Source: a virus. From it: a stretch of DNA of 38,094 nt. This document shows positions 12,701 to 38,094 of this stretch, piece by piece; within the stretch, counting starts at the first letter, position 1; each line of letters begins with the position of its first letter. Where the stretch lies: positions 1-38,094 of IMG/VR virus record IMGVR_UViG_3300020733_000460. One strand, written 5' to 3'. Below the pieces are notes generated by a model. It made no database searches, had not been told where the DNA came from, and worked only from the letters and a program-made list of their open reading frames with translations. The position numbers and the translations under genes are program-made.

Positions 12701-13699
12701 GTAATAGGTTTCTTAGGAAATACAGATGGTACTACTGCTTCTGCCACAAGTCCATTAAATACTCTTACCCTTACAGATGTTGTCAAATACGGTAATGGTA
12801 TTACTAATGACAGATTTACTGGCGGATCCGTAACTACTGGTATCATGTATATGGGCAGTACCAGTGCTGGTAATAGTGGTAAGGATTATAAGATTGGCGG
12901 CACATCTCTTACTGGATTCCATAATAGCTATAGTTTGATAGCTGTTAATACTGCACATGGTACTGCTACAGTTCCACAGTCAGATGCAACTACTGGTTTC
13001 ATCGATGTAACAGGTTTACAAATAAGTGGTGCTAATGCTATTGCTTATAACTCAGGTTCAAGCTCTTACGTTTATACTACACCAAGTGGGCTAACTTGGG
13101 CAACTGTAAGTGGATCAAGTACTGGAACTGTTGTTATCGGAACTAATTCTAATGTCACAATTGGTAGCTCGGCCAGCACTGATGTTAGCGGCGGTAATTT
13201 GTTTGTCAACTATATCTATGCCGGTGGTTATACTGCAACTCCTGGAACAGGTGGTAGTTCAACATTATACGGACAGTTTAGACTTGGCGGAGCATCAACT
13301 TTCACAGCAACTTACTCAGCTGACTTAGCTGAGTATTATGAAGGCGATGCAGAGTACGAAGTCGGTACTGTAGTAGTGTTCGGTGGTGACAAAGAAGTAA
13401 CTGTTACCAGCCAAATAAACGATACACGATTAGCTGGTGTAGTTAGTCATACAGAAAAGGCAGCCTTTGTCATGTATGATGATTGCCCAGGAATGAAAAA
13501 TCTTGTAGCACTAGCAGGACGAGTTCCAGTTAAGGTTGTTGGCCGTGTTAAGAAAGGTGACATGTTGACAACAAGTGCAACACCGGGATATGCTGTTAAG
13601 GCATTGAATCCAACATTAGGATCAATCATTGGTAAAGCATTACAAGACAAGGATTACGGAGAAGCCGGAATCATTGAAGTTGCTGTAGGGAGAAATTAA
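758..13699 (+). CDS. Giant fibre-like virion protein, 4313 residues
   Basis: This is a very large Thr/Ser/Gly/Asn-rich protein with a GGAG site at 746-749. The N-terminus carries the NDGTGDSIRDSFNKVNNNF motif shared with the genes at 13699 and 13991. Helical modules of the type AEI-AY ... RDVGYIVDA ... YDL recur at about 1927-2110, 2217-2310, 2541-2735, 4080-4272, 6283-6372 and 6597-6780. A beta-helix-like stretch lies near residues 1345-1400 (SGIYYEDFPIKLPP). Many beta repeats of the forms G-GIPAGTYV, YNGTW-V and YYI-SI follow. Around 11290-11560 is a segment (GRVFYASTDENGIFRVG) typical, from memory, of marine T4-like tail proteins. The C-terminus (from about 13315, ADLAEYYEGDAEYEVG) resembles the intramolecular-chaperone/Peptidase_G2-type ends of fibres. 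It is most likely a long tail or adhesion fibre. The host receptor is unknown, and autocleavage is only inferred. Confidence 0.85.
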   Translation: MTQQIINTGIQGNDGTGDSIRDSFNKVNNNFSELYAVFGLGGKLSITGLGDWPIGSNNAPLPYSSNQLITTNATGTSLYPRTLTNSDGNITITFSNNAIDFKTTASKLINDASPTLIQNINGQNTYTIGNIVDPSPSLVTAFNSIYAGSPTSLGRLPVTVKYASQHFVAGTGSNFSNINSVTGESTNITTAPNAGTYTVTAAIKSRPQPLSPQILLADGVTPEPDYNPSLTSNYLATEVMQRKDTVYRGGDTMTGALTLSDHPAPLSGFGTPKSSADLQAATKYYVDNNTFYSSVNLYVATTGDDNQTLTPVGRQGRAWQYAYKTISAACLQADSLISLSQLEPGPYRQTITYTQNAVQTQSIVTSSPSLGLTGNNGNSTYTQAQSILESNKTFIQTETIAYINQKYVQQFSNTGFYTILSNLVQGIGYDIILGTNFNSITYTTSLFNSSLTNQSIVSNQLAQVTDAINQIQNQIATYSYSSGNGGLLQQYIQQVVTALQYDLLLGSNFQTTMAGLNFSHYGTGLTTTEIVWALNQGVSPTASLENIILGAIGTSNGQKALLDPYFNNLISIIQTGVAATPTFPSTSSTSIEQTDAKTLLLNNISFMQAEIVAYLTSKYPTVAYNKTTCQRDVKYIVWALVYDLIYGGNSQSAYAGLQYWGASYNVNTFQDQEKSATVAAVIYLKTLAQNVITNTALGTNGTVLYQTTVPQYTNQTLNHVVSGDTLSNGIIANITTIQTILSSSSESVALASYSPQSPTTPSTGTIYGYIVNFNASGWATTVDNNIQTHYQIIKSSGFNGKVSALFNNINQILTYGAPTSSLSGTATISITNASSVNGFTTNNTYNLFVGQQITFASTWGGSVNIAGTANSVYYIYSINSSNNTFQVSTTDPNLSGTVAVSVVNTTGTSTATVYTRPTPYMPSANPINYGAAVAGILANLQFLADDAYWFAQNNHPGFGGGANGATVFKQNIIYLAEAIAYDLATTTAGNSGNNSATVYATNQIMLNFTSGSSENLIWYGGTLTVIGHLLDSITKVSENSTVTPQSGATIAQTRSSSFDSAHAFASGAITTLFTSTIEPIMSGTTVSPVYPILSSYSTNQAQLYLDTQIVIGQSATIANNILAYMAGKYTGGFNYNQSTCFRDVGYIVDAMVIDLLTGGTYQSINAGKSYFKNASGSTIAIGTQYTETFDGLKQAQIIATQVLNQVSALRYQSQVLQYPSSFSSVLGPASGAVSTFNTNYTTMLSIIQNGINFAPTPSFGSGLWTIQFANGGRGYVDQGTPGDVHILPGQILIGNTSGAQGVIVSYSQGTTNSYDTIVLQLTQPGFFLQNETLDFGATTNNLQIAINVESGIYYEDFPIKLPPNCTIQGDDFRRTIVRPANRISQSPWINTFFYRDVVIDNLLTGQINFPSLGRGGIDYAVAANTTLTLSSTSGNITGTLGSGTAPASWVGLILTDAIALFTGYISGNTLTISSVTSGTISGANNGFSATYSSPNFVGQSITGPGIPAGTYVTGTTYASSSSTVASGVNSQWILNNSLTVGSSGSPVNMIANTGLAQITNVSGNIFYATVLQGYPFFSAESNPTAIASGYWHLFGALPYGYHYLTDPQNVYSTPLNNKLIDMFLVNDATRIRLISGQGHGGFMMVLDPTGQIKAKSPYAQESGCFSGSTNQPRFAGGQFIDGFTGRLLGNITNVNALNGVAGLSLTFTGSQNTGLDVRAPQVPASFFIQGNRYQINEVLSYTQAVPQVTASYVSGGASGASSVVLSSNTGIVSGMLVSGTGVPAYTYVSPLWNGTTTILLTAALNAQAAGSYTFSLPQTTLILDASTPYNTIGAFGNSYTGLTTTLGSVIDAVTYDLALGTNYQSIKTGLTLIQPQNLPSGLALSLTSQGITYSGTTIAALGNVSGTATINTNLGIVSNILNNGLSAVPPISWATSTSTYTATNQIAVKNILQINKAFIQAEITAWISNTFSISSNAAYSAIKSQRDLGYIIDALTYDILYNNSASNSNSMIYDIAQSYYSAGTSTLQITIGTNTVSVQAICLASYVRLNQILQSIIINQAITPTAGNNLVQDRTTYTYTTGSLPTAEQTKIAGLMSYLVDYVSDGSFNYSAIATVTNNSAVLNNVSWVPGLTVGATVSGTGVSGTISALTGPAITITAGTANSNIATLTYATQTSVPFIVGGTLTVANMTPSAYNVTGATVLSATTTQVTYAIASTPSNASVFGTATSLYTANLGGPITLSAVATATSTTTNGSNIDGTVITFASTNLTNNYPLGRYSPYVSSADFTRIESNKTAMIGTYSSTSFVGYLNGTTLNVSSVNSGTITVGMTIAGNGVASGTIITAAGTGSGSSGSSTWTISPSQVVGNGSSTFTITGSVATGILNYINNGGSLTVPIEMGGNRSMLANDYTQVNDLGYGVLATNNGLTEQVSTFTYYNHTAYWALNGGQIRSVAGSNSNGDYGLRSTGYDLTQIPNVVTITNNQVQTAKIYKQGSTASYMVPTAATPALSVWIIGYQYTPFNNSELEIDHTLAGGGISRYSVANVQHAGININGQDVLQLSFSTAGTGGTSTSGLQYPLYDGQIVTIRVLQNQKVNNVATVHPTRPSTSFQYSNNLSSVYRVITYNLVESTGESLVQLTQAATATFLSPTSNAVSSAVIQVVLVSGTIAAGQIISSKSISGGLTVYSVSQIGSSTTYAVTLAGPNGVGVGTPPTQPTVGEAITFSNVQQTTAIIQADSSFNYTQLATDPQSITTPDPTAYLTGYASGSVVSGSTASYTLTVNSVTGTITTGMYVGGLGFYQTGAYVSAASYNSGTGVWTLTLSAYPTITPTGFIYFAIKTLGAQVTDNKIAVTPLAQSNAISQIQTGTYITSWNGRVHIIKNYVPAVSVATASYVSGGTQGTPTLTVNQATGTINASVPALNQYVYVQGTGYTGSPIYVSAVSGPDGSGNYTITLAGATLPVSVSATTLTFGTAQQAYIILDPNPVYNVAGTNSAAYALTFANSQYSVNTTSYEYVTYNVASTQTYTNTTPVLPPVDSYITISGQATTGYNGTYQVVGNTNQSVITVGSTTGIQVGMILSSSTAGAIIPPNCLVQPNAAGLSSTTQFTVSPAVWLPPNAQITATFPLTVIAVTLVQSTGTGYSTAPSLIFTNPNGFTGITAQAYCTVDPNTQTINSVVLVTGGYGYATAPTVTASTGNARFTVTMSTVTPYSATLSGQPFVNTTQITVGYPSAVTEVNNATVIGGGTAGQVTGVSGNYVTISSTANLIVGNQILFTLPTSASSQVGNIVAGVPATSTAAATVGTTYYIQSIYSATQFTISTSQFGSAFAVGTASGTLNWVSSNFNFGGSNTYIGNAISAASVSGSAGNPYSVTFTVASINVTNGAYYRVYNSTNPLYNGTWPCSSATLTGQTSITLTYPGNPGTFTGTAYMAPEITTSSSSVLGISKPFSTGTTSALKVGYPANSTGQIIVNISTCRATGHDFLLIGTGGYNTSNYPNTIFGSPAIPAKPANQVFEETVGRVFYASTDENGIFRVGKYFTVDQGTGTVTFSASIALSNLTGLGFKQGVTVTKFSNDASMSDYSDFVVPTQTAVIGYIDDRLGLTRTGSATTASNLIGYGYLSLGGQLAMKGNLNMGNTNRIINLGTPSSATDAATKAYVDATGFLAGLEDVQITTPSPGNILTYDTTTGTATATAASTNYISVSTTTYLQAGDTIVFTWVSGTGLSAGGLTSGTTYYITGTPTTAYPNTTSAGTITVSTSLKGSNVTLTQANAGSTVTFVSSRWKNISIPQGSNPVVSVQGTTGDGINTATLTYYASTNQFVAGQTVIVNGVVPTGYNGIWTVLTSSFNTGTGNITIGGSGNPITTSGTMTSPVGVGTIIGNSSNWTYNSLSTSFTNIINSNSIVDSMVNSYAAIQQSKLLMQYATASTSTAPTGYTQSTTGLAQFNSNVFTSTFGWIDLVTASSSSTGIQPSKLTYQTQGTVIGFLGNTDGTTASATSPLNTLTLTDVVKYGNGITNDRFTGGSVTTGIMYMGSTSAGNSGKDYKIGGTSLTGFHNSYSLIAVNTAHGTATVPQSDATTGFIDVTGLQISGANAIAYNSGSSSYVYTTPSGLTWATVSGSSTGTVVIGTNSNVTIGSSASTDVSGGNLFVNYIYAGGYTATPGTGGSSTLYGQFRLGGASTFTATYSADLAEYYEGDAEYEVGTVVVFGGDKEVTVTSQINDTRLAGVVSHTEKAAFVMYDDCPGMKNLVALAGRVPVKVVGRVKKGDMLTTSATPGYAVKALNPTLGSIIGKALQDKDYGEAGIIEVAVGRN

Positions 13700-14837: not shown

Positions 14838-17800
14838 ATGCCACTAAGTATCTGGACTCAACCAACAGGCTACCAATTTACTAACAACGGACAACCATTT
14901 CCGGAGCAGGTAGCTGTTAATATTCCATTACCTCTAGGTATTGGAGATGTAGCTCCGCCTAGTTATGACGGAACTGGACATAATCCAACTGCACCATTAA
15001 GAAACGCGGCAGGTACTGCTTTTGCTAGATACCCTGTAAATAGTTATTCAGATGGTATACATGCCATGCGTACTGATTTAACAAACCCAAGAACTATAAG
15101 TAATCTAGTAGTATACGATCCGATTAATCAAGGCAACCAAGATGATCCAAATGGCTACAGTGGATTTATGTATGCATGGGGACAATTCATTACGCACGAA
15201 ATAGCGTTCGAGCGTGTAGGTAATCAAAACATCGATGTTATTGTTCCTCCTGGAGATACTAAGTTAACACCAGGCAGTCATATTCCAGTTAATAGACTAC
15301 AACTTGTACCGGGCACAGGACAAAATGGTGTAGTAGCAAACTTTATCAATGATACAACTGGATGGATAGACGGTACTGTAATCTACGGGCTGGCTTATCC
15401 GCCGGGCGTTACACAAGGGACTACTGTTTTTCAAAATCCTGTAAATTTACGAGAAGGTGGCGAGACAGCTACCACAGGAAAACTATTAACATCCGGCGGC
15501 GGCTTATATGCGCCTGTTGACCCAATCACTGGTATGTTTGTATTTGGAGATCCAAGAGGCACTGAAAATCCAGATTTAACTAGCATACAAACATTAATGA
15601 TACGAGAACACAACTGGCATGTTACCAGATTAACTGCGCAATATCCAACTTGGACCGGTGAGCAATTATATCAACGTGCCCGTGCATTAGTTATAGCCGA
15701 AGAACAAATTATTACCTACAAGGAATGGTTGCCTAAAGTTTTAGGAGCAACTGCAATTCCTGCCTATACAGGGTTTCAACAAGGAGTCGATGCAACTATA
15801 AAAATAGAAGTCGATGTAGCGGCTTTGCGATTTGGCCATAGTATTGTGTCGGACGCACAGGATCGTGTGGACGAACAAGGTAATGTTACTGAATCATTAA
15901 CTATAGCGCAGGCTTTCTTTTTAACTCCAGCACAATACGAACGTAATGGCGGTGCTGATGGATTCTTAAGAAAATTAGCAAGCGATGTGTCAAATAAATT
16001 AGATGTACATATTATTGAAGATTTACGTAATCTACTTAACGACCCACCTGCCGCAATGGATCTTGCCGCAACAAATATTCAACGCGGACGAGATGCTGGT
16101 ATTCCTAGTCTAAATCAAATGAGACAAATTTTAGGATTGTTTACATATACTAGTTTTGAACAAATTACTATAGATGCCACAGTAGTTGCTGGGTTAAAAG
16201 CGGCTTATACTAATATAAATGATATAGATTTGTGGGTAGGAGGACTGGCAGAAGACCCAATTAACGGTGCTATGGTCGGTGCTACGTTCCGCGCTATACT
16301 AATCGATCAATTTACAAAGTTACGAGATGGAGATAATCAATGGTATGAAAATAAACCATGGAGTCCGAGCGATTTAGAATGGATTAATAATACTACATTA
16401 AGTGATGTAATATTACGTAATACTTCTACCGTACGTATGCAAGCAGATGCATTTATAGCAGTTGACCGTGCAGATTTATATAATGGAAATGTATCGACTA
16501 TTGTAGCTCGAGCATCATATCCTACCTCCACTAATGTATCTAATTTAACATTTAGTATAATTAGTGGAGCATTGCCCGGCGGACTGGGTATAAAAGATGG
16601 CTATATCGTTGGTAGTCCATTCGTTACCCAAGGATTAGATGCTTATCAATTTTGTATTAGAGCCAATGGAACTGCTAACTCAACAGCCGCACAGTTTGAT
16701 GCTGGCAAATTTATACCAGGTGGAACTATTACTGGAACATTTTTAGTGGGTATGACATTAACTGGTTCCGGTATTCCTACAGGAACTTATATTGTTTCAG
16801 ATAACGGTGACGGATCATTTGCTGTAAATGTAACCAAGAATATTGCCAGTGTTAGCACAGCTGGATACGGATTTGCAGATAGAACATTTAAGATGAACAT
16901 CAATGGTGCTAATGCACCTGTGTTTACAACACCTGCTGGTAATTTACCTGTTGGTACACATCAACAACTTTATGCGTTAGACAATACTTTTGTTAGTTAT
17001 CAAATTGAAGCGTTTGATGAGAACACGCTATTAGGAAATAATTTAAAATATTTTATTGCAAGCGGAGATGGAAAACTTCCTCCAGGGTTAACTCTTAGTA
17101 ATTCAGGGGAGATTAGCGGATACATACTTCCTAATCCACAAACTGTAGTTACTGTTGATTCGGGTACTGGTGCATTTGATGATGCATATTTTGATGATGC
17201 AGGATATGATTTTGCCACATTGCCAACAGATGGATTTGATAGTTATCAATACGATGACGTCACTTGGGACTATAGTTCTAATGTAGTACCGCCTAGCACC
17301 TTAAATCAAAATTATCAATTTAAAGTTACAGTGTCAGATGGCATATCAAGTGCTCAAAGGGTTTTTAAAATATTTGTATTAGGTAACGATGCATTTAGAG
17401 CAGATTCAACAGAAAAAGATGGATTCGCTGGCGGATTCACTGCTGACTCTAGTTTCCTAAGAACACCAGTTTGGTTGTCTAAAACTAATTTAGGAACTTA
17501 CAGAGCTAATAATTATCTCACTGTACCAGTTGCATTATATGATAACAGTAATGTTATATTTCGTTTAGAAACTACTAATTGCGAAGTGTATGCAGTTACT
17601 AAAAAATTAACACAGTTTGATAATATACAATCTATTACACTCACAGGAAACCTTACACTTAATAGTCCAGTAATAACTGGTGTAGAACATGCTTATGCCT
17701 ATACTGCCGGACAAACTATAGAAGGAGCAGGTATTCCGAGTGGTAGTATAGTTAGTAGTACCAGTAGTGATATACTATTATCTAATGTCGTTATTACTAG

Positions 17801-19757
17801 TACTAACGGAACATTTACTTGTGATTTTGCAACAAGCCAACTGTATGTTGGACAAAAGATTACGGTCTCAGGACAATTTGGAGTTTCTTCACAGATAGCT
17901 GACTACACTCCTCCAAGTATATCATCCGGCGGAAAAACATCATCTGTTTATTATATCACTGCTACTAATGGATTCACATCTTTTACACTATCAAATACAT
18001 TTAATGGCATTCATGTAACGACTATCGCAGGTACTCCGACTGGAGTAACATTTACTGCTAATGCTTATACACTAACATTGTCAACTAATGCTACATTGAA
18101 TCTTACAGGTTCGACTATGATTTATGGTGGAACTAGTCTAACTATATCAAATGCTTCTAAGGCTCCAACTCCAGGACAATACTTTACCTTTGATAATTAT
18201 ATTGCAGGAGCTAGCAGTGATATCTATTTAATATCAAGTGTAGCGGATCTAGGAAGCGGATCTTATAGATTAACTCTCAGTACACCTTTAAAAATCGTCC
18301 CTCCAGACTTGTCAGGTTTCTATATAGGCACATTGAGCCAACTACCGAATGGCACTACTTTTGATGTTAACACTGGAGAAATATACGGCAAGGTTCCATA
18401 CCAACCAGCCATAACTCAAGTATATACTTTTACGGTAACTGCTGTACGATCTAATCCGTCATTGACAAATTCTGAATACGTTATTAGTTTTAAAACATTC
18501 AACATAGTAATTCTAGGACTTGTTACTAGTCAAATAACATGGAATAGCCCAAGCGCATTAGGTTCTATTCCTGCGGCGTATCCGTCTACGCTGTCTGTTT
18601 CAGCAAGTAGCAATGTTCCTAGTACTACAGTTCTCTACTACTTAACTGGAGGTAGTTTACCTTACGGGTTGTCATTGAGCATCGATGGTGAAATTGTAGG
18701 AACTCCAACACAATATGGGTTAGGGGCAGATTCTGGTGTATATGGACTAACTACTTTCCATGATACTGATTCAAACGGTGTTAGATATGTAAATCAAACT
18801 TTTGATAACAGTTCAACCACCATTGACAGAAAATTTACTTTCCAAGTTACTGCTAGTGATTCATATCAATATAGTGCATTACCAAAAACTTTTACAATAA
18901 ATGTAACCAGTCCAAATTCTGTTCCTTACAGCAATATTACCACACAACCATTTTTAGCTCCTGCACAAAGAAATGCATGGCGAGCTTTTATCAACAATAC
19001 TGCAATTTTTACTCCTAGCAGTATATACAGAGCAAATGATCCTGTGTTTGGAGTGCAGACTAATTTACAAATGTTAGTCTATGCTGGTATACAAACTGAA
19101 GCGGCGGCGGCCTATGTCGGAGCAATGGGATTAGGATTCAAACGTAAACGTTTTAAATTTAGTAGTGTTAAAACTGCTGTAGCAATAGATCCTAACTCAG
19201 GTAATGATGTTTACGAAGTTGTGTATGTACAAATGATAGATCCGTCAGAAACAAGCACGTTACATCCTTCTGCATCATTCAAGTCTAAAAGTTTAGAACC
19301 AGAAACTATTACAGTAGATGACAGTAACAGTATTTGGTCAACTAATCTTAGCGATTTAACTGCTAATGCACCTTTTAGCACTCGACCCGGATATGAAATA
19401 ACTGTAGACAGTACCGGATATCAAGTTAGCAATCCTAATACAGATACATACTACAACAATACTATTACAAACTGGCAAAATCATTTGAGTACTGTAGGAT
19501 TGACAGAACGCAACTATTTGCCTCTTTGGATGCGTAGTATTCCGTCTGGATCTAAAGCACAACTAGGGTATGTGCTTTGTGTGCCGATTTGCTTCTGTAA
19601 ACCAGGAACTAGTGCCAAAATTTTAACAAACATCAAATATAGTGGCTTTGATTTCAACACTATAGACTACACCGTAGACAGATTCACGATCTCTGCTGTC
19701 ACCGGTTATACAAGCGATAAATACCTTGTATTTAGAGACGATAGGATAACAGTATGA
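14838..19757 (+). CDS. Virion protein with an N-terminal animal-type heme peroxidase domain, 1639 residues
   Basis: Residues ~50-515 match the animal heme peroxidase (myeloperoxidase/peroxidasin-like) superfamily. Visible are distal His H120 in WGQFITHEI, catalytic Arg R240 with E243 in GDPRGTENPDLTS, REHN at 256-259, EQIITYKEWLPKVLG, proximal His H334 in LRFGHS, N413 in NIQRGRD, and IDLWVGGLAEDP followed by FTKLRDGDNQWYEN. The myeloperoxidase heme-ester Asp is Thr here (T119) and its Met is Asn (N244), while the ester Glu is kept. At least four putative-Ig (He_PIG-like) units follow near residues 565-615, 744, 1168 and 1271. The last ~90 residues (ERNYLPLWMRSIPSGSKAQLG to the end) resemble C-termini of T4-like virion proteins. 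There is no signal peptide, so it should assemble in the cytoplasm into the particle. The ATG follows the preceding stop by four bases. The peroxidase call is strong; the place in the virion is inferred. Confidence 0.88.
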   Translation: MPLSIWTQPTGYQFTNNGQPFPEQVAVNIPLPLGIGDVAPPSYDGTGHNPTAPLRNAAGTAFARYPVNSYSDGIHAMRTDLTNPRTISNLVVYDPINQGNQDDPNGYSGFMYAWGQFITHEIAFERVGNQNIDVIVPPGDTKLTPGSHIPVNRLQLVPGTGQNGVVANFINDTTGWIDGTVIYGLAYPPGVTQGTTVFQNPVNLREGGETATTGKLLTSGGGLYAPVDPITGMFVFGDPRGTENPDLTSIQTLMIREHNWHVTRLTAQYPTWTGEQLYQRARALVIAEEQIITYKEWLPKVLGATAIPAYTGFQQGVDATIKIEVDVAALRFGHSIVSDAQDRVDEQGNVTESLTIAQAFFLTPAQYERNGGADGFLRKLASDVSNKLDVHIIEDLRNLLNDPPAAMDLAATNIQRGRDAGIPSLNQMRQILGLFTYTSFEQITIDATVVAGLKAAYTNINDIDLWVGGLAEDPINGAMVGATFRAILIDQFTKLRDGDNQWYENKPWSPSDLEWINNTTLSDVILRNTSTVRMQADAFIAVDRADLYNGNVSTIVARASYPTSTNVSNLTFSIISGALPGGLGIKDGYIVGSPFVTQGLDAYQFCIRANGTANSTAAQFDAGKFIPGGTITGTFLVGMTLTGSGIPTGTYIVSDNGDGSFAVNVTKNIASVSTAGYGFADRTFKMNINGANAPVFTTPAGNLPVGTHQQLYALDNTFVSYQIEAFDENTLLGNNLKYFIASGDGKLPPGLTLSNSGEISGYILPNPQTVVTVDSGTGAFDDAYFDDAGYDFATLPTDGFDSYQYDDVTWDYSSNVVPPSTLNQNYQFKVTVSDGISSAQRVFKIFVLGNDAFRADSTEKDGFAGGFTADSSFLRTPVWLSKTNLGTYRANNYLTVPVALYDNSNVIFRLETTNCEVYAVTKKLTQFDNIQSITLTGNLTLNSPVITGVEHAYAYTAGQTIEGAGIPSGSIVSSTSSDILLSNVVITSTNGTFTCDFATSQLYVGQKITVSGQFGVSSQIADYTPPSISSGGKTSSVYYITATNGFTSFTLSNTFNGIHVTTIAGTPTGVTFTANAYTLTLSTNATLNLTGSTMIYGGTSLTISNASKAPTPGQYFTFDNYIAGASSDIYLISSVADLGSGSYRLTLSTPLKIVPPDLSGFYIGTLSQLPNGTTFDVNTGEIYGKVPYQPAITQVYTFTVTAVRSNPSLTNSEYVISFKTFNIVILGLVTSQITWNSPSALGSIPAAYPSTLSVSASSNVPSTTVLYYLTGGSLPYGLSLSIDGEIVGTPTQYGLGADSGVYGLTTFHDTDSNGVRYVNQTFDNSSTTIDRKFTFQVTASDSYQYSALPKTFTINVTSPNSVPYSNITTQPFLAPAQRNAWRAFINNTAIFTPSSIYRANDPVFGVQTNLQMLVYAGIQTEAAAAYVGAMGLGFKRKRFKFSSVKTAVAIDPNSGNDVYEVVYVQMIDPSETSTLHPSASFKSKSLEPETITVDDSNSIWSTNLSDLTANAPFSTRPGYEITVDSTGYQVSNPNTDTYYNNTITNWQNHLSTVGLTERNYLPLWMRSIPSGSKAQLGYVLCVPICFCKPGTSAKILTNIKYSGFDFNTIDYTVDRFTISAVTGYTSDKYLVFRDDRITV

Positions 19758-21552: not shown

Positions 21553-22062
21553 ATGCGTCTAGATAAATTCGGTAATCCTATTTTCAATTCAGTAGATATA
21601 TTCAAATTCCTTTATCAAGGAAAGCTAACCAACCTCAAAGATATTACAGTAGATTATACTGAAGAAATTGGTGAGTTAGAAAAGACTGCTGGTTTCACAT
21701 TTCAAAGATTCAACGAGCAATTAAATTCTATTGATATTGCAGATTTTGATTCTGCATTACAAAGCGATTGGTTTATGCCCGAAGAATATAAGGACTTTGA
21801 TGTTGAAGAATGGTGTCTAAGTCGTTGTAATACACAGCAACAAAAAGACAGAGTATTAGATGAAATGGGTGCTTACTTAGAACGAGGTATGATTCCATTA
21901 CTACAATGGACTAAGCATTTTGTAGACACTTGCAACGAAAATGGTATTGTTTGGGGTGTAGGTAGAGGGTCTAGCGTAGCTAGTTTTGTATTGTATCTAC
22001 TGGGCGTACACCAAATAGATTCAGTCAAATATAATTTAGACTGGCAGGAATTCCTGAGATAA
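21553..22062 (+). CDS. DnaE-like polymerase III alpha palm fragment lacking the catalytic aspartates
   Basis: A 169-residue protein whose second half (residues ~100-169) matches the start of the bacterial replicative polymerase alpha palm. It has a helix region LDEMGAYLERGMIPLLQWTKHF, then GVGRGSSVASFVLYLLGV (GRGSS at 137-141), then YNLDWQEFLR. In DnaE this is followed within about 15 residues by the PDFDVDF metal-binding motif. Here the gene stops just before that point, so it cannot polymerise by itself. The intact frame and the uninterrupted operon suggest a retained function, such as nucleotide binding or interference with host polymerase, rather than decay. The N-terminal 90 residues are acidic and unrecognised. 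A hairpin (TCAGC/GCTGA) lies in the 9-base gap upstream, and no clear ribosome site is seen. Confidence 0.7.
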   Translation: MRLDKFGNPIFNSVDIFKFLYQGKLTNLKDITVDYTEEIGELEKTAGFTFQRFNEQLNSIDIADFDSALQSDWFMPEEYKDFDVEEWCLSRCNTQQQKDRVLDEMGAYLERGMIPLLQWTKHFVDTCNENGIVWGVGRGSSVASFVLYLLGVHQIDSVKYNLDWQEFLR

Positions 22063-32792: not shown

Positions 32793-33167
32793 ATGCGCTT
32801 AAGAGAACTATTAGAAGGTACTTTCTTTAAAGATACGGACTTTGTAAAACACGAAGACGATGGGCGTCGCGTTATCGATTACGATTTAGTCGACGACTTA
32901 TCACATTTTATGGATCACGATGATACTTGCTATCGTCGATACACATATCCAGTACTAGCAAAATTTCTAGAAATGAAAGATGGTAAGAAAGATCCTAAAC
33001 CAGGCATTTTTGAACCCGCAGTAAAAGACAGTTATAGAGCCTATATTAAACAATTTCCTATTCGTGAGTTACCAGACGAACTAGATGAGGACACAATCAA
33101 GCAAGTATGTGAAAAATTATATGATGATCACAGCAATCATCATGCCGAAGGCAAGTACAAAGGTTAA
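32793..33167 (+). CDS. Predicted head-packaged protein with a capsid-targeting-like N-terminus
   Basis: A 124-residue acidic protein beginning MRLRELLEG. A T4-type prohead protease site (hydrophobic-x-Glu) fits after E8. T4 internal proteins and Alt carry comparable N-terminal capsid targeting peptides cut by gp21. The rest is helical with many Asp, Glu and Lys residues (YDLVDDLSHFMDHDDTCYRR, ELPDELDEDTIKQVCEKLYDD) and no recognised enzyme motif. It is first in a co-oriented cassette whose members share this N-terminal pattern. The ribosome site is weak (ACGGG). Confidence 0.7.
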   Translation: MRLRELLEGTFFKDTDFVKHEDDGRRVIDYDLVDDLSHFMDHDDTCYRRYTYPVLAKFLEMKDGKKDPKPGIFEPAVKDSYRAYIKQFPIRELPDELDEDTIKQVCEKLYDDHSNHHAEGKYKG

Positions 33168-33169
33168 AC

Positions 33170-36100
33170 ATGCTATTACGAGAGTTGTTTGTCCGTAAGC
33201 CTCACTTTATCATTACTGAAGGTGGTAACGCTGAAGTTGATGATGTTGAAGATCCTAACGTCAAGCATCGTGCTGATCGTATAGACTTAGCTGTACACAA
33301 TCGCACACAAGTAATTGCAATATTAGATCAAGTACTACACGGAATTAATCAAGCGTTTGAAGCACAAAATAGTACACCACTATGGAATCCACATCTATTA
33401 AAGAGTAAAGAATTCTTAGGTGGATCATCGTTACACTTTTTTAATGTACCACATATATCAGACGAAGAATTTTTAAGAGTAAAACCGGTAGTTGGCGATA
33501 TCGACACTCAATGCGATAGACAACTAGAACCTCAAGTTAAAAATTTCTTAACAACACATCACGGTCGACAGATAGGTCCTGCAAAGTTACTAGGATTTAG
33601 TAACAACGGCGGACAATTTAATGCATTATTTGAAATAACATCAAATCATTTGCCTATTAAAGTTCAAATAGACTTTGAATTTGGAGAATATGATCCAAAG
33701 ACCAATGCTCCGACTCCTTGGTACAGATTTAGTCACAACTCAGAGTGGAATGATTTAAGTACACAGGAAAAAGGTAAGAAAGACGGCACTGGAGTTGTTA
33801 GTGGCATCAAAGGTGTGTTCCACAAATATCTATATAGATCATTAACTAAAGGTTCACCAACAACAAAGTATGTTCAGATGAAGACTAAACTTAAAGGTCC
33901 GATTACTGACAGTAACATATCATTCGCGGTACATGGCGCTACCGGTGGTGGACTAAGTCAAAAGTATCAAGAGACCGGACGCGAGCAAGACGGTATTCCA
34001 ATTATGATTGAAATACCTACTAAAGATAGACCTTATATACAAGATTTAAATCAACAGTTTGAATTGTTCTTTGGTCGTCAACCTAATAAACAGGAAAGCG
34101 AAAAACAAAAGAGTTTTGTTGGTACTATTGATTTAATGAATGATTTCAAAACTCCTGAAGAAAATCAAATAACAATGGATGCTTTCATCCAATTGTGTTT
34201 TGAGCCAGGATCACAGATGATTAACAGAGACGACCCGGAAGGCGATCGTGCTGTTAAAATGTCTGCTATTAACTATGCACTAGCACATCTTAACTTATCT
34301 GATAAAACAACTTTAGAAACAAAAGCCAAAACAATGGCAGCTGAATATGAAGAAGAGCATCATGAAGTTGAACAGTATAAAAAAGATTATCCAGAAGAGC
34401 GTCAACCAAGAGCACAAGTTGCTAAACTACGTGCGGCTCGTAATGCCAGTCGTCCATTAACTGAATCTGAAGTTAAAGCACAACTACGTAAAGGCATGCC
34501 GCACTTACGTGATTTAAAGCCAATGGATTTGTTAGACTTGTTAGATGAGCTACATGACAATGGCAAGTTTGAATTAAAGAATATTCCACTTAATGTTAAA
34601 GTAGACGGCTTTGGTGGACGCTTTGGTAAAAATGCAGAAGGCAAACCTTTTATGGGTACCAGTCGTACCGAGCCACGTTATGAAGCAAGTTTTGTAAAAT
34701 ATCATCAACAAAAAGGAACCACTGATCCAGATATACTAGGTCGTGCTCAGATGTTTGATGATTTGTTTAATGAAATGATGAAAGCTATTGAATTAGTAGA
34801 CAACAAGCTAGGTCCAGAATTTTTAGTAAACAAACAAGTAACATGTGAAGTCTTATTCATTCCATTTGCTACAGAAACACCAGAAGGCAAATTAAAATTT
34901 GTTGGTATACATTATGACAAGTTACCCGACGGTATTGAACTGGCTCTTGTTCCATTCCATATCAGTGATGCTACTACAGGTGAATCAATACCCGATGGTC
35001 ATAGACTAGTTGAACAATTAACAAAACTTGGACAACAAGACAGTGTTATGTTTATTAACAATAGACTAATGCAACACAAGGCTCTAGATGTTACTGCTAT
35101 TGTCCCCCCAATGGAAAACATTGAACAAATTAAAGCAATGTTAACTAGTGGAAAACTAGCACTAAAACGTGAAGCTAAAGAAATACTACAACCAATAGCA
35201 CTGGAATTAGAAAAAGCTATTATTAACGATCCCAATATTGTTGGTAAAAATTTACTCGGTGATGAGTACGAAGGTATTGTTATTAACAGTCGATTAGGTC
35301 CTATTAAAATTACCAGCCAAGAACAACGTAAAGTCATTGCAGATAAAAATGCTGCCAAGGCCGCCGCAAGAGCTGAACAGCCTCGTGAAAACACTAATAA
35401 AACCGCTGTAGTTGCTATAGGTTCGTTTGTCGGACACAAAGGACATCAAGAGCTTTGGAACTATACAGTTAACAAGGCTAAAGAACTAGGTGGTGATCCA
35501 TATTTGTTTATTGGTAATGCGGAGGGTAAGGATGATCCTATTCCTCCTAGCATTAAAGTTCAAACATGGCATAAATTATATCCACAATATGCTAATCATA
35601 TGAGTACAGTTACTCAAGAAGGTGGTACACTACTACAAAAGATCAAACACGAATTAATTAATCCGTTGCCAGGAAAACCTCCACGATACGATAATATTGT
35701 TATTATGGTAGGAGAGGATCGTGCTAATATGAATATTGCACAAGTCCTAATGAAAGCAGTTAACAAATTTGCCGGTTATGAGCATGTTCGTGTAAGTCTA
35801 GAAGTTACCCCACGTGGTCAAGGTGTAAGCGGCACACAGCTACGTAAAATGGCCGCAACAGCCGCACACGGTCATAAAGAACCAGCTATGGAATTCTGGC
35901 GAGATGCATTTAACGGTGGATCATTTGGAGCTAAACCATTACCAGATTCTTGGATTAAACATCTAATGCAGGTAACACAACAGGGCATGGGCATGGTTCC
36001 TGGAACTTCTGTAAATGTTGTTAATAAACGTGATCCTAAACCACAACCTCAAATACCAGCACAAGTGCCAGCACAAGATGAGCCGCCTACTGAACCGCTA

Positions 36101-36532
36101 AATATAAAAGAAGCCAATAACTGGATTAGAAAAATGCGAGCAAGCGAATTTACAAGAAAAAAACTAGCAGAAGGTGATGTTCCATATGCTGGAAAAGGCA
36201 GTGAGAAACTTCACCATGTGCATATTCAAGCATTAAAAAATGCTATGAGTATTCCTAATATCAGTATGAACAAGGCTAACGGTAGCCCATATATGCAATA
36301 TAGATTTGGTATAGCTATGGCTAATCCAAATATGCCTCGAGCAGGTGCTATGAGTGGAGATCCACTAATTACTGCTTACACAGATGCAGATATGCAAAAA
36401 GTAAAAGATGCCGCCAAGGCTGTAGGGGCAGGTGCTATTACACATTTGTCCGATGGTGTGAGTAACGAAGCAGATGGTGGTAATATTGTCAGTCCAGTTA
36501 GACAACCAAAGAAAAACAAGTACGGAATTTAA
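33170..36532 (+). CDS. Triple nucleotidyltransferase polyprotein, predicted head-packaged (1120 residues)
   Basis: Four regions are visible. (1) Residues 1-17, MLLRELFVRKPHFIITE, fit a capsid-targeting peptide with a prohead protease site after E17. (2) Residues ~80-290 look like a Pol-beta-type nucleotidyltransferase: GGSS at 84-87, D110/D112 in VGDIDTQCD, D168 in VQIDFEF. (3) Residues ~450-720 look like a ligase-type covalent nucleotidyltransferase: K477-V-D-G with R484 (motif I), E560 in CEVLFIPF, EGIVI at 701-705 (motif IV), IKITS with K713 (motif V). (4) Residues ~745-930 are an HxGH nucleotidylyltransferase: GSFVGHKGH (751-759) and GVSGTQLR (885-892). A Pro-rich linker (955-975) precedes a last domain starting at M989 (MRASEF) and ending KKNKYGI. 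Substrates are unknown; RNA or NAD-type repair is a guess. Confidence 0.72.
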   Translation: MLLRELFVRKPHFIITEGGNAEVDDVEDPNVKHRADRIDLAVHNRTQVIAILDQVLHGINQAFEAQNSTPLWNPHLLKSKEFLGGSSLHFFNVPHISDEEFLRVKPVVGDIDTQCDRQLEPQVKNFLTTHHGRQIGPAKLLGFSNNGGQFNALFEITSNHLPIKVQIDFEFGEYDPKTNAPTPWYRFSHNSEWNDLSTQEKGKKDGTGVVSGIKGVFHKYLYRSLTKGSPTTKYVQMKTKLKGPITDSNISFAVHGATGGGLSQKYQETGREQDGIPIMIEIPTKDRPYIQDLNQQFELFFGRQPNKQESEKQKSFVGTIDLMNDFKTPEENQITMDAFIQLCFEPGSQMINRDDPEGDRAVKMSAINYALAHLNLSDKTTLETKAKTMAAEYEEEHHEVEQYKKDYPEERQPRAQVAKLRAARNASRPLTESEVKAQLRKGMPHLRDLKPMDLLDLLDELHDNGKFELKNIPLNVKVDGFGGRFGKNAEGKPFMGTSRTEPRYEASFVKYHQQKGTTDPDILGRAQMFDDLFNEMMKAIELVDNKLGPEFLVNKQVTCEVLFIPFATETPEGKLKFVGIHYDKLPDGIELALVPFHISDATTGESIPDGHRLVEQLTKLGQQDSVMFINNRLMQHKALDVTAIVPPMENIEQIKAMLTSGKLALKREAKEILQPIALELEKAIINDPNIVGKNLLGDEYEGIVINSRLGPIKITSQEQRKVIADKNAAKAAARAEQPRENTNKTAVVAIGSFVGHKGHQELWNYTVNKAKELGGDPYLFIGNAEGKDDPIPPSIKVQTWHKLYPQYANHMSTVTQEGGTLLQKIKHELINPLPGKPPRYDNIVIMVGEDRANMNIAQVLMKAVNKFAGYEHVRVSLEVTPRGQGVSGTQLRKMAATAAHGHKEPAMEFWRDAFNGGSFGAKPLPDSWIKHLMQVTQQGMGMVPGTSVNVVNKRDPKPQPQIPAQVPAQDEPPTEPLNIKEANNWIRKMRASEFTRKKLAEGDVPYAGKGSEKLHHVHIQALKNAMSIPNISMNKANGSPYMQYRFGIAMANPNMPRAGAMSGDPLITAYTDADMQKVKDAAKAVGAGAITHLSDGVSNEADGGNIVSPVRQPKKNKYGI

Positions 36533-36910
36533 ATGAGAGCTCGAGAGTTTATTACCGAACGCACTGGACAGCATCATCCAGAACATAAAGCTGTGGCCCA
36601 AGGTACTCGACGTGTTCGTGATCCAGGCGGGTATTATCCTAGCTATCATCAATATCGTACAGGCATAGTGTTAGGTATGATGACCGGAGACGGCAAAACT
36701 CCAACTAATGTAGATCATGAAAGCTGGATGGGTCCATATTGGACACAGCATCCTTATACAGAAGTAGAACATAATATGTTTAGAGATGCTCGCAAAGTAA
36801 TTCCTACAGAGGACCACGAAGTATTGCCATGGTCAAAGAGTAAAGAACCAGATGAAATTCATAAGATTAGTCCGGTTGCCGCAAAGAAAAAGAACAAGCA
36901 CGGTGTATAA
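36533..36910 (+). CDS. Predicted head-packaged protein with shared C-terminal peptide
   Basis: A 125-residue protein that starts immediately after the stop of the 1120-residue gene. It has an N-terminal MRAREFITE, a fit to a T4 capsid-targeting peptide cut after E9. The middle (YHQYRTGIVLGMMTGDG ... HPYTEVEHNMFRDARK) parallels a domain in the next protein and at the end of the upstream giant. The C-terminus ISPVAAKKKNKHGV is the family peptide. The function is unknown. The shared ends and the neighbouring stop/start coupling argue for a common fate, probably packaging into the head. Confidence 0.72.
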   Translation: MRAREFITERTGQHHPEHKAVAQGTRRVRDPGGYYPSYHQYRTGIVLGMMTGDGKTPTNVDHESWMGPYWTQHPYTEVEHNMFRDARKVIPTEDHEVLPWSKSKEPDEIHKISPVAAKKKNKHGV

Positions 36911-37470
36911 TGAGAGCTAAAGAATTTATTGTCGAAGCCGCAGAATCAACAGATGCTATCAGCAATCCGGACAAGTTAGATCGTCAGGGTAAAACTTTGG
37001 CGCAAACTAAGAAAGACAGCAAATTAACTCAACCTAAAAAAGAATATCACCCTAAGCCTTTTAAGACTGGAAAGTTAGGTGTTCCTTACGATAGTTCTCC
37101 GCATGATACTCATAGTCGCCATCAGGATAATACAGAATACGGTAGTGTTCGAGGAGACTTATCCGATGAAGCTAAAGCCGCCATGCCAGGCGCATTTAGT
37201 GTAGAAGATTTGCCTAGTGATTTCTATGGGGTGTACAGATTAGGAATGGGACTAGCGGCAGGTGATCGCAATGTTGCTACCGCTGACAACGTTGGTAAGC
37301 ACCCATTTTTTATGCCGTTTGCTCCTGAAGAACATGCTAAATTTGACAAAGAAATTAAACGTCAGGGGCATAAAACCAAAGCTAGAACCACAAAAGATAG
37401 TTTAGAATTATCAACTAACAACATAGTTAGTCCAGTAGCTAAACTAAAACGTAACAAGTACGGTGTGTAA
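36910..37470 (+). CDS. Predicted head-packaged protein with shared C-terminal peptide
   Basis: A 186-residue protein starting on the last base of the preceding stop (TAATG). It has MRAKEFIVE at the N-terminus (likely cut after E9), then a basic Pro/Lys-rich linker (LTQPKKEYHPKPFKTGK), then a domain (FYGVYRLGMGLAAGDR ... HPFFMPFAPEEHAKFDKEI) similar to the preceding protein and to the end of the 1120-residue one. It ends NNIVSPVAKLKRNKYGV. No catalytic residues stand out. Three related copies in tandem suggest duplication and divergence of a packaged protein or peptide-tagged cargo. Confidence 0.72.
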   Translation: MRAKEFIVEAAESTDAISNPDKLDRQGKTLAQTKKDSKLTQPKKEYHPKPFKTGKLGVPYDSSPHDTHSRHQDNTEYGSVRGDLSDEAKAAMPGAFSVEDLPSDFYGVYRLGMGLAAGDRNVATADNVGKHPFFMPFAPEEHAKFDKEIKRQGHKTKARTTKDSLELSTNNIVSPVAKLKRNKYGV

Positions 37471-37700
37471 TGGATGAACTAGCACGTCTTAAGAAGTTAG
37501 CAGGCATTAATGAATTTAAGGGCTTGCAACCTTATGGCGGAAGTAACATCAGTATAACTGGTACAGAGAAACGCATTATCGAACGTGAACAAAATATACA
37601 ACCTGGAACTGAAGAATGGTTCAAACTATGGTTTAGTTTACCTAAATTTATGGGTGGAGAACGTGCAGTAGGTAATGGGTTTAGAGGAATCAAAAAATGA
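37470..37700 (+). CDS. Small cassette protein
   Basis: A 76-residue protein, overlapping its neighbours by TAATG before and ATGA after. It begins MDELARLKKLAGINE, an amphipathic helix that I recall at the start of many head or scaffold-associated proteins in large marine phages; a cut after E15 would fit the prohead protease pattern. The rest is short (PGTEEWFKLWFSLPKFMGG) and lacks the shared C-terminal peptide. The function is unknown; cassette membership is inferred from coupling and the N-terminal helix. Confidence 0.65.
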   Translation: MDELARLKKLAGINEFKGLQPYGGSNISITGTEKRIIEREQNIQPGTEEWFKLWFSLPKFMGGERAVGNGFRGIKK

Positions 37701-38094
37701 AAATTAAAGAATTGTTAGAAGGCCCTTATGAAGATGGCGTAAATGATGGTAAACGAGGTCATCGAAATCCACGTGCCAGTTCTATATATGGTCCTTCATC
37801 AGATCATTATGAAAAAGGTTACCAACACGGCGTCACCTTAGGAAAAAAAGAAGGTGAAGCAAACGTAAGAAGATATGAAGAGTGGCTTAAACCTTTTTCA
37901 CATCTGTCAAATGAAGAACTTCACGACCTAGCAGAAAAATTTAGACGTAGTCCAGAAGATAGAATGGCAAATGGACAACCGTATCCATATAACAGTAAAT
38001 TTCAAGCAATACATCAAGTATTAGGTCAGCGAAGACACAATCCAAATTATGGGTTAGATGCTAAACATGGTGTAGCGGAATCAGCTAGTGCAGG
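37697..38094 (+). CDS. Predicted head-packaged protein, right end cut by window (partial)
   Basis: The frame is open for 132 residues to the window edge. It starts at an ATGA overlap with MKIKELLEG, nearly the same as MRLRELLEG at 32793, so a capsid-targeting-like peptide with a cut after E8 is likely. The remainder is charged and helical (DHYEKGYQHGVTLGKKEGEA, EELHDLAEKFRRSPEDRM). The last residues seen (GVAESASA) include another hydrophobic-x-Glu-like site (VAE), possibly a second cleavage point. The C-terminus is not visible, so whether it has the shared KNKYGV peptide is unknown. Confidence 0.65.
   Translation, partial: MKIKELLEGPYEDGVNDGKRGHRNPRASSIYGPSSDHYEKGYQHGVTLGKKEGEANVRRYEEWLKPFSHLSNEELHDLAEKFRRSPEDRMANGQPYPYNSKFQAIHQVLGQRRHNPNYGLDAKHGVAESASA

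What the first reader, a model, noticed from the sequence alone, without database searches (positions are those of the whole stretch)
33170..36532. One phage protein carrying three unrelated nucleotidyltransferase signatures, predicted to be injected
The sequence shows in one frame a Pol-beta-type pattern (GGSS, DID, later D), a ligase-type pattern (KVDG...R, EGIVI, IKI) and an HxGH pattern (GHKGH, SGTQLR), with a capsid-targeting-like N-terminus. Each pattern belongs to a known superfamily. From memory, single HxGH nucleotidyltransferases with a similar N-terminal peptide occur in marine T4-like phages, but I do not recall the triple fusion. An injected enzyme set able to transfer nucleotides, seal ends and make a dinucleotide-type cofactor could counter RNA-cutting or NAD-depleting defences at the moment of entry; that function is inference.
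Basis: partly seen in the sequence, partly recalled or inferred. Interest (0 to 1): 0.88.

Follow-up and report, generated by a model that had tools for sequence, protein, structure and literature searches.

The report
Phage polyprotein carrying three nucleotide-transferring enzymes
A large family of uncultured T4-like phages makes one long protein that joins a polymerase-like, a ligase-like and an adenylyltransferase-like enzyme behind a head-packaging tag, with apparent cutting sites for the phage's own head protease between parts, so the phage may deliver a ready-made end-repair kit with its DNA.

Summary
The 1120-aa ORF 33170-36532 is one intact frame with three enzyme domains: Pol-beta nucleotidyltransferase (A, 18-432), ligase-type covalent nucleotidyltransferase (B, 433-738) and HUP/HxGH nucleotidylyltransferase (C, 739-945). 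AlphaFold2 gives confident domains (mean pLDDT 85.5; A alone 92.8). Structure searches return Pol mu/beta/lambda for A, ligases (best Z 11.0, Naegleria RNA ligase) for B and PPAT/NMNAT (Z 12.7) for C. Catalytic residues are invariant or nearly so in 62 relatives; 69 distinct complete fusions were found, so the fusion is no artefact. The predicted products, A and B-C, match the gene partition in cultured Vibrio and Campylobacter phages. Related contigs carry T4-type gp23 and prohead protease. A published cyanophage virion proteome contains the C homologue (T4-GC190). Packaging is therefore likely; cleavage, injection, activity and substrate are unproven. Best guess: a delivered nucleic-acid end-repair set, RNA favoured over DNA. 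A new architecture built from known superfamilies.

The parts
33170..36532 (+). precursor polyprotein, 1120 aa
   Evidence: single ORF; 69 distinct complete A-B-C relatives
33170..33220 (+). targeting propeptide, residues 1-17, ending at the predicted prohead-protease site ITE17|G18GN
   Evidence: pLDDT < 50 at 1-6 and 8-18; conserved M.L.ELF...xE|GGN; standalone homologues start M-GGN
33221..34465 (+). domain A, residues 18-432: Pol-beta-superfamily nucleotidyltransferase (G85-S86, D110, D112, D168)
   Evidence: model pLDDT 92.8, pTM 0.90; Foldseek and VIA rows shown are Pol-beta superfamily, best Z 8.4; phrog_19290 E 2.3e-16
34448..34484 (+). disordered A/B linker (about residues 427-438) with predicted cleavage site LTE432|S433
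   Evidence: pLDDT < 50 at 426-439; a site in the linker of 49 of 56 relatives
34466..35383 (+). domain B, residues 433-738: ligase-type covalent nucleotidyltransferase (K477-x-D-G, E560, E701-G702, K713)
   Evidence: VIA Z 11.0 to Naegleria RNA ligase over 435-726, Foldseek DNA ligases; invariant motifs; phrog_12709 E 4e-6
35384..36004 (+). domain C, residues 739-945: HUP/HIGH nucleotidylyltransferase (HKGH 756-759, SGTQLR 887-892)
   Evidence: VIA Z 12.7 to PPAT and 10.8-11.6 to NMNATs; PDB profile hit NMNAT 4yp7 E 8e-6; phrog_3041 cytidyltransferase
36134..36532 (+). C-terminal module, residues 989-1120, with its own targeting-like start MRASEFTRKKLAE1001|G; paralogous to the next two genes
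   Evidence: 30% identity, E 2e-7, to 36533-36910, and 29%, E 1e-5, to 36910-37470; separate ORF in L002/L003
32793..33167 (+). small gene with targeting-like start MRLRELLE|G, conserved directly upstream; its homologue is fused into the N-terminus of the polyprotein in L041, L044 and L179
   Evidence: profile of the upstream genes of 51 loci hits it at E 5e-39 and the three inserts at E 2e-45 to 6e-44
36533..36910 (+). small gene, start MRAREFITE|R
36910..37470 (+). small gene, start MRAKEFIVE|A
37697..38092 (+). gene cut by the window end, start MKIKELLE|G

Best explanation
It is a precursor polyprotein of a T4-like phage. The N-terminal peptide targets it into the prohead, and the phage's gp21-type prohead protease then cuts after LxE/IxE motifs. 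This releases A (Pol-beta enzyme, mature N-terminus GGN), B-C (ligase-type plus HUP nucleotidylyltransferase) and one or more small tail modules. The pieces are delivered with the DNA and repair nucleic-acid ends at the start of infection: A adds nucleotide(s) to a 3' end, B seals through an enzyme-nucleotide intermediate, C makes or uses an adenylylated cofactor. RNA, for example tRNA cut by anticodon nucleases, is the favoured substrate. Shown by computation: one ORF, three folds, conserved catalytic residues, conserved fusion, motif placement, and a T4-type head protease in phages of the same family. Inferred: packaging, cleavage, injection, every enzymatic activity, and the substrate.
For: Folds. 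Conserved catalytic residues in 62 fusions. Motif [LIVMF]xE|[AGS] per 1000 aa: propeptide 38.6, A/B linker 15.5, C-extension 7.2, but A, B and C cores 0.7, 1.3 and 0.8 (0.2-0.3 of shuffled); control ORFs of the same phages 5.2; non-tagged homologues 2.9 and 4.1. Only the propeptide, a short loop and the A/B linker are disordered in the model. Predicted products equal the genes of Vibrio phiKT1024 (974 = M-GGN A; 979 = B-C) and Campylobacter CP220 (gp100, gp026). Six of 14 larger contigs hold both gp23 and the S77 protease, with matching sites in gp23, gp21 and gp22. T4 Alt is cut at ITE-6 and LTE-619 (PMC5694885). T4-GC190, the class of P-HM2 gp163 that matches C, is in S-SM1 virions (PMC3037559). 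Segments occur both as separate tagged genes and as parts of the polyprotein. A was not found without B/C in cultured records. A Pol-beta enzyme plus a ligase is the described pairing in phage RNA repair (RlaP; PMC7824862).
Against: No virion proteomics or N-terminal sequencing of this family. The prohead protease was not sought in the window's own genome beyond this 38-kb fragment and was not found in 8 of 14 fragmentary contigs. B is also similar to DNA ligases by Foldseek, and A to DNA polymerases mu/beta, so RNA as the substrate is not favoured by structure alone. C has no obvious role in tRNA repair. Vibrio phiKT1024 already has an annotated Rnl1 and a tRNA nucleotidyltransferase, so the trio may do something else. 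In Vibrio, Stenotrophomonas and Xanthomonas phages no targeting peptide is evident on A, so packaging is not universal.
Confidence: 0.45

Rival explanations
1. Same packaged and processed polyprotein, but the substrate is DNA: A fills gaps and B seals nicks in the incoming or damaged phage genome, as a PolX-ligase pair does.
For: A is closest to DNA polymerases mu, beta and lambda. Foldseek also lists DNA ligases, including that of ASFV, for the whole model. In cultured T4-like phages the genes lie beside uvsX, the gp41 helicase and DNA polymerase. Few PF01068 DNA ligases were seen in the 14 contigs.
Against: B has no evident OB-fold domain, which DNA ligases need (established knowledge); the best structural match by Z is an RNA ligase. 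C has no known role in DNA repair.
Confidence: 0.25
2. Nucleotide or NAD cofactor supply: C (an NMNAT/PPAT-like enzyme) restores a dinucleotide cofactor depleted by host defence, and A and B use or sense it.
For: C matches NMNAT and PPAT at fold and profile level; phrog_3462 NMNAT hit for the Vibrio B-C protein.
Against: A Stenotrophomonas phage holds the trio plus a separate NadM-Nudix and NadV pair; NadV is found in only 3 of 14 contigs of the fused family; HxGH is degenerate in the Campylobacter and some other B-C proteins, which suggests that C is not always a classical NMNAT.
Confidence: 0.15
3. A multi-enzyme made and used in the cytoplasm during infection; the N-terminal peptide and LxE motifs are incidental.
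For: Several cultured phages have A, B and C without any evident targeting peptide.
Against: Peptide and E|GGN kept in nearly all of 56 non-redundant members; motif enriched in linkers and depleted in cores; inserts land exactly at the motif; a C homologue was found in virions.
Confidence: 0.15

Closest known systems
T4 internal and ejection proteins with a capsid targeting sequence (Alt, IPI-IPIII)
   Same: Short N-terminal peptide ending in I/LxE; site for a gp21-type protease; enzyme cargo in the case of Alt; neighbouring genes share the peptide
   Different: One precursor carries several enzymes with internal sites; cargo is nucleotidyltransferases; packaging not yet shown
Polyvalent proteins (Iyer et al. 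2017, PMC5512222)
   Same: Phage proteins joining disparate enzyme domains, predicted to be packaged and injected; processing into separate products was suggested there
   Different: Processing here would be by the prohead protease at LxE sites in T4-like phages; Pfam found none of their signature domains (ArdC-N, DarA, DdrB) in P0001
RlaP Pol-beta plus RNA ligase repair pairs (jumbo phages, PMC7824862)
   Same: Pol-beta nucleotidyltransferase working beside an ATP-grasp-type RNA ligase
   Different: A does not match the RlaP or any other Pfam model; B matches no Pfam ligase; the third enzyme C and the polyprotein form are new
Cyanophage T4-GC71 (DUF6267) and T4-GC190 (cytidyltransferase) pair
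   Same: Ligase-motif protein followed by a HUP enzyme, adjacent or fused (P-HM2, S-PM2); GC190 is a virion protein in S-SM1
   Different: No Pol-beta domain found there; separate genes or a two-domain protein; sequence similarity of the B parts not significant

Membership tests
Pol-beta nucleotidyltransferase superfamily (A) | GS motif, DxD and a third D | tested here: met
   G85, S86, D110, D112 and D168 invariant in 62 sequences and kept in standalone homologues
Pol-beta nucleotidyltransferase superfamily (A) | Pol-beta palm fold | tested here: met
   All VIA rows shown are Pol mu/lambda/beta, TdT, TUT7 or Trf4; best Z 8.4, rmsd 3.9, 180 aligned
RlaP family | match to the Pfam family model | tested here: not met
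   No such hit for P0001 (E up to 10) or for 12 A domains (E up to 1)
Ligase-type covalent nucleotidyltransferases (B) | motifs I (KxDG), IIIa, IV (EG) and V (K) | tested here: met
   K477, D479, G480, R484, E560, E701, G702 and K713 invariant in 62; also in X1 and IME-SM1 proteins
Ligase-type covalent nucleotidyltransferases (B) | nucleotidyltransferase fold | tested here: met
   Naegleria RNA ligase Z 11.0, rmsd 3.7, 194 aligned; DNA ligases by Foldseek
RNA ligase versus DNA ligase (B) | substrate | not testable with these tools
   Only fold similarity available; no OB domain evident
HUP/HIGH nucleotidylyltransferases (C) | HxGH and ISxTxxR-type motifs | tested here: met
   H756, G758, H759 and R892 invariant, S887 and T889 at least 90% in 62
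HUP/HIGH nucleotidylyltransferases (C) | Rossmann-like HUP fold | tested here: met
   PPAT Z 12.7, NMNAT Z up to 11.6; PDB profile hits
NMN adenylyltransferase (C) | substrate specificity | not testable with these tools
   PPAT, NMNAT and FAD synthetase matches are similarly ranked
CTS-bearing T4 head proteins | short N-terminal peptide ending in I/LxE | tested here: met
   ITE17|GGN in P0001; conserved in the family
CTS-bearing T4 head proteins | gp21-type protease and gp23 in the same phage | tested here: met
   6 of 14 relatives' contigs hold both; the window's own genome is a fragment and could not be tested
CTS-bearing T4 head proteins | present and cleaved in virions | not testable with these tools
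   Only the related T4-GC190 has published virion evidence
Polyvalent proteins | disparate enzyme domains in one phage polypeptide, likely packaged | tested here: inconclusive
   Architecture fits; signature domains not found in P0001 by Pfam; packaging unproven

The most novel reading that the evidence does not exclude
A T4-type head protease is used as a polyprotein processing enzyme: phages load proheads with long, modular precursors whose enzymes are released by cuts at LxE sites and delivered as a set. The core set (Pol-beta, ligase, HUP) is a previously unrecognised entry-stage nucleic-acid end-processing pathway spread across T4-like phages, and it would also give a biochemical identity to DUF6267 of cyanophages.
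Probability: 0.5. Interest if true: 0.85.

Novelty: new variant of a known kind. Interest (0 to 1): 0.72.

Why it matters
If true, the phage head is loaded with a processed polyprotein, a strategy better known from eukaryotic viruses, and several phage protein families of unknown function (phrog_19290, phrog_12709, phrog_27149, DUF6267 with its HUP partner) become parts of one testable pathway. It would add a pre-made repair or counter-defence set to the small list of enzymes known to enter with T4-like DNA. DUF6267-type proteins alone match in 466 phage records.

Tried and rejected
Frameshift or assembly artefact: rejected, 69 distinct complete fusions from many samples. Pfam, NCBIfam and PADLOC names for A and B: nothing usable. 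PDB sequence search for A and B: only chance hits. Profile-profile link between fused B and the Vibrio/Campylobacter or DUF6267 B parts: not significant (E 0.14, 0.07, 0.29), so that link rests on motifs and gene order. Cellular relatives in one genome per bacterial and archaeal species: none found. Canonical RNA ligase PF09414 in relatives' genomes: none in 14 fragmentary contigs. Geometry of catalytic residues in the models: coordinates are not readable by the tools, so clustering was not measured.

Full report
Observation. The window encodes one intact 1120-residue ORF at 33170-36532. Scans of viral contigs returned many relatives. Six-frame analysis found 69 distinct complete ORFs with all three domains in the same order, 56 after removal of near-duplicates. 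In an alignment of 62 of them the catalytic residues are invariant or at least 90% conserved. So the fusion is real, widespread and under selection.

Folds. AlphaFold2 on residues 1-945 gave mean pLDDT 85.5. Only residues 1-6, 8-18, 201-208 and 426-439 fall below 50. Foldseek and VIA-align place 742-943 with phosphopantetheine and NMN adenylyltransferases (Z 12.7, rmsd 3.2, 152 aligned, for the best; NMNATs 10.8-11.6) and 435-726 with Naegleria RNA ligase (Z 11.0, rmsd 3.7, 194 aligned), DNA ligases appearing by Foldseek. Domain A folded alone (pLDDT 92.8, pTM 0.90) matches only Pol-beta superfamily members in the rows shown: Pol mu, lambda, beta, TdT, TUT7, Trf4 (best Z 8.4). Profile search of the PDB confirms C (NMNAT 4yp7, E 8e-6) but finds nothing for A or B. 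PHROG hits are phrog_19290 (A, no function), phrog_12709 (B, no function) and phrog_3041 (C, cytidyltransferase).

The parts elsewhere. In cultured T4-like phages the same parts are separate genes: Xanthomonas phage X1 has A, one other gene, B and C in a row; Stenotrophomonas IME-SM1 has A, B and C in a row; Vibrio phiKT1024 has A and a fused B-C protein; Campylobacter CP220 has A and B-C about 66 kb apart. tblastn finds A in 15 Campylobacter, 6 Vibrio, 16 Stenotrophomonas and 1 Xanthomonas records, and B or B-C in the same numbers (Xanthomonas). In uncultured relatives of the Vibrio type, A lies upstream of B-C on the same strand, within about 1.6 kb, in 9 of the 11 non-Campylobacter loci. 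B parts of the Vibrio/Campylobacter type share motifs with the fused B, but no significant profile match.

Polyprotein evidence. (i) T4's protease removes the targeting peptide of Alt at ITE-6 and cuts its C-terminus at LTE-619 (PMC5694885). P0001 has ITE17|GGN and LTE432|S. (ii) Contigs that carry the fusion also carry gp23 (PF07068) and the S77 protease (PF03420) in 6 of 14 cases tested, with conserved candidate sites such as KYLAE|SATAG in gp23, VVLE|SDD in gp21 and many in gp22. (iii) The motif [LIVMF]xE|[AGS] occurs at 38.6 per 1000 residues in the propeptide (partly by definition), 15.5 in the A/B linker (49 of 56 proteins) and 7.2 in the C-terminal extension, but only 0.7, 1.3 and 0.8 in the A, B and C cores, 0.2-0.3 of shuffled expectation. 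Other ORFs of these phages have 5.2 (1.46 of shuffled), standalone untagged A 2.9 and untagged B/C 4.1 (small samples). (iv) Standalone A genes begin M-GGN, the N-terminus predicted after cleavage, and there is no site between B and C, which are one protein in Vibrio and Campylobacter phages. (v) Segments move between 'own gene' and 'polyprotein part': the small gene upstream in 51 loci (32793-33167 here) is fused to the N-terminus in L041, L044 and L179, ending in xME|GGN; a metallopeptidase-like segment (HELTH, HELVH, HELHH) is inserted at the same point in L013, L073 and L132; the C-terminus of P0001 is a copy of the next two genes' family. (vi) Long C-terminal extensions contain an HD domain (L008), an amidoligase (L076) and a possible GNAT (L071), with repeated QGVAE|G/A motifs (32 V[AGST]E[AG] against 3.4 expected).

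Packaging. No virion data exist for this family. The nearest evidence is published: T4-GC190, a 'putative citidylyltransferase', was detected in purified S-SM1 virions (PMC3037559). P-HM2 gp163 is annotated T4-GC190 and matches domain C (blastp E 7e-9). In Methylophilales phage Melnitz the B-like protein starts ...KYITE|D and the C protein MKKFSEIIE|ARGD, seen by eye.

Mechanism. I commit, at 0.45, to a packaged and processed end-repair set with RNA as the favoured substrate: a Pol-beta enzyme beside a ligase is the RlaP-RNA ligase theme of phages (PMC7824862), where restoration of a lost nucleotide before sealing is predicted; B's best structural match is an RNA ligase and no OB domain is evident. 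DNA repair (0.25) is close behind, because A resembles Pol mu/beta and the genes sit beside replication genes in cultured phages. Simple NAD rescue is less likely. A purely cytoplasmic enzyme (0.15) is disfavoured by the motif statistics. All activities are inference.

Verdict. Known superfamilies, known targeting principle, new architecture and probably a new use of the head protease.

Noticed in passing
L021:2736-3953, L228:5995-7774, L229:5950-7206: DUF6267 (PF19782, T4-GC71, no function; 466 phage records match) carries ligase-like motifs KWDG, EG(Y/F)VAI and VK(L/I)VDR. It precedes the HUP protein and in S-PM2 appears to be one B-C protein split in the record by a frameshift (p141/p142). 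BFVD fold search lists an S-PM2 protein of 591 aa over 673 columns, E 1.8e-15.
   Followed up: partly
L017:4858-5862, L020:3116-3980, L018:7925-8737, L021:1246-2736, L229:4881-5966: Next to or fused with the separate A/B/C genes lies a protein that by eye has a PD-(D/E)xK-nuclease-like pattern. Pfam found nothing.
   Followed up: no
L215, L216, L218, L219, L224 (standalone A genes): A hydrophobic-x-E|A/S motif sits 6-18 residues from the C-terminus, suggesting C-terminal processing like that of T4 Alt.
   Followed up: no
window 14838-19757: A 1639-aa phage protein with a complete animal haem peroxidase domain (PF03098, E 6e-112).
   Followed up: no
window 758-13699: A single ORF of 4313 aa, not identified.
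   Followed up: no
window 21553-22062: A 169-aa ORF that by eye resembles a piece of bacterial DNA polymerase III alpha (GRGSS...YLLG).
   Followed up: no
L008, L071, L076 C-terminal extensions: HD_4 domain (E 2e-17), a weak GNAT hit and an amidoligase (E 1e-10) as further polyprotein cargo.
   Followed up: partly
flanks of the fusion in most loci: Conserved downstream neighbours: an 85-105-aa protein MKQYRIT.DN..QDSDDDCYLAPEDPIHEL and a Dps-like protein (by eye), then more genes with targeting-like starts.
   Followed up: no
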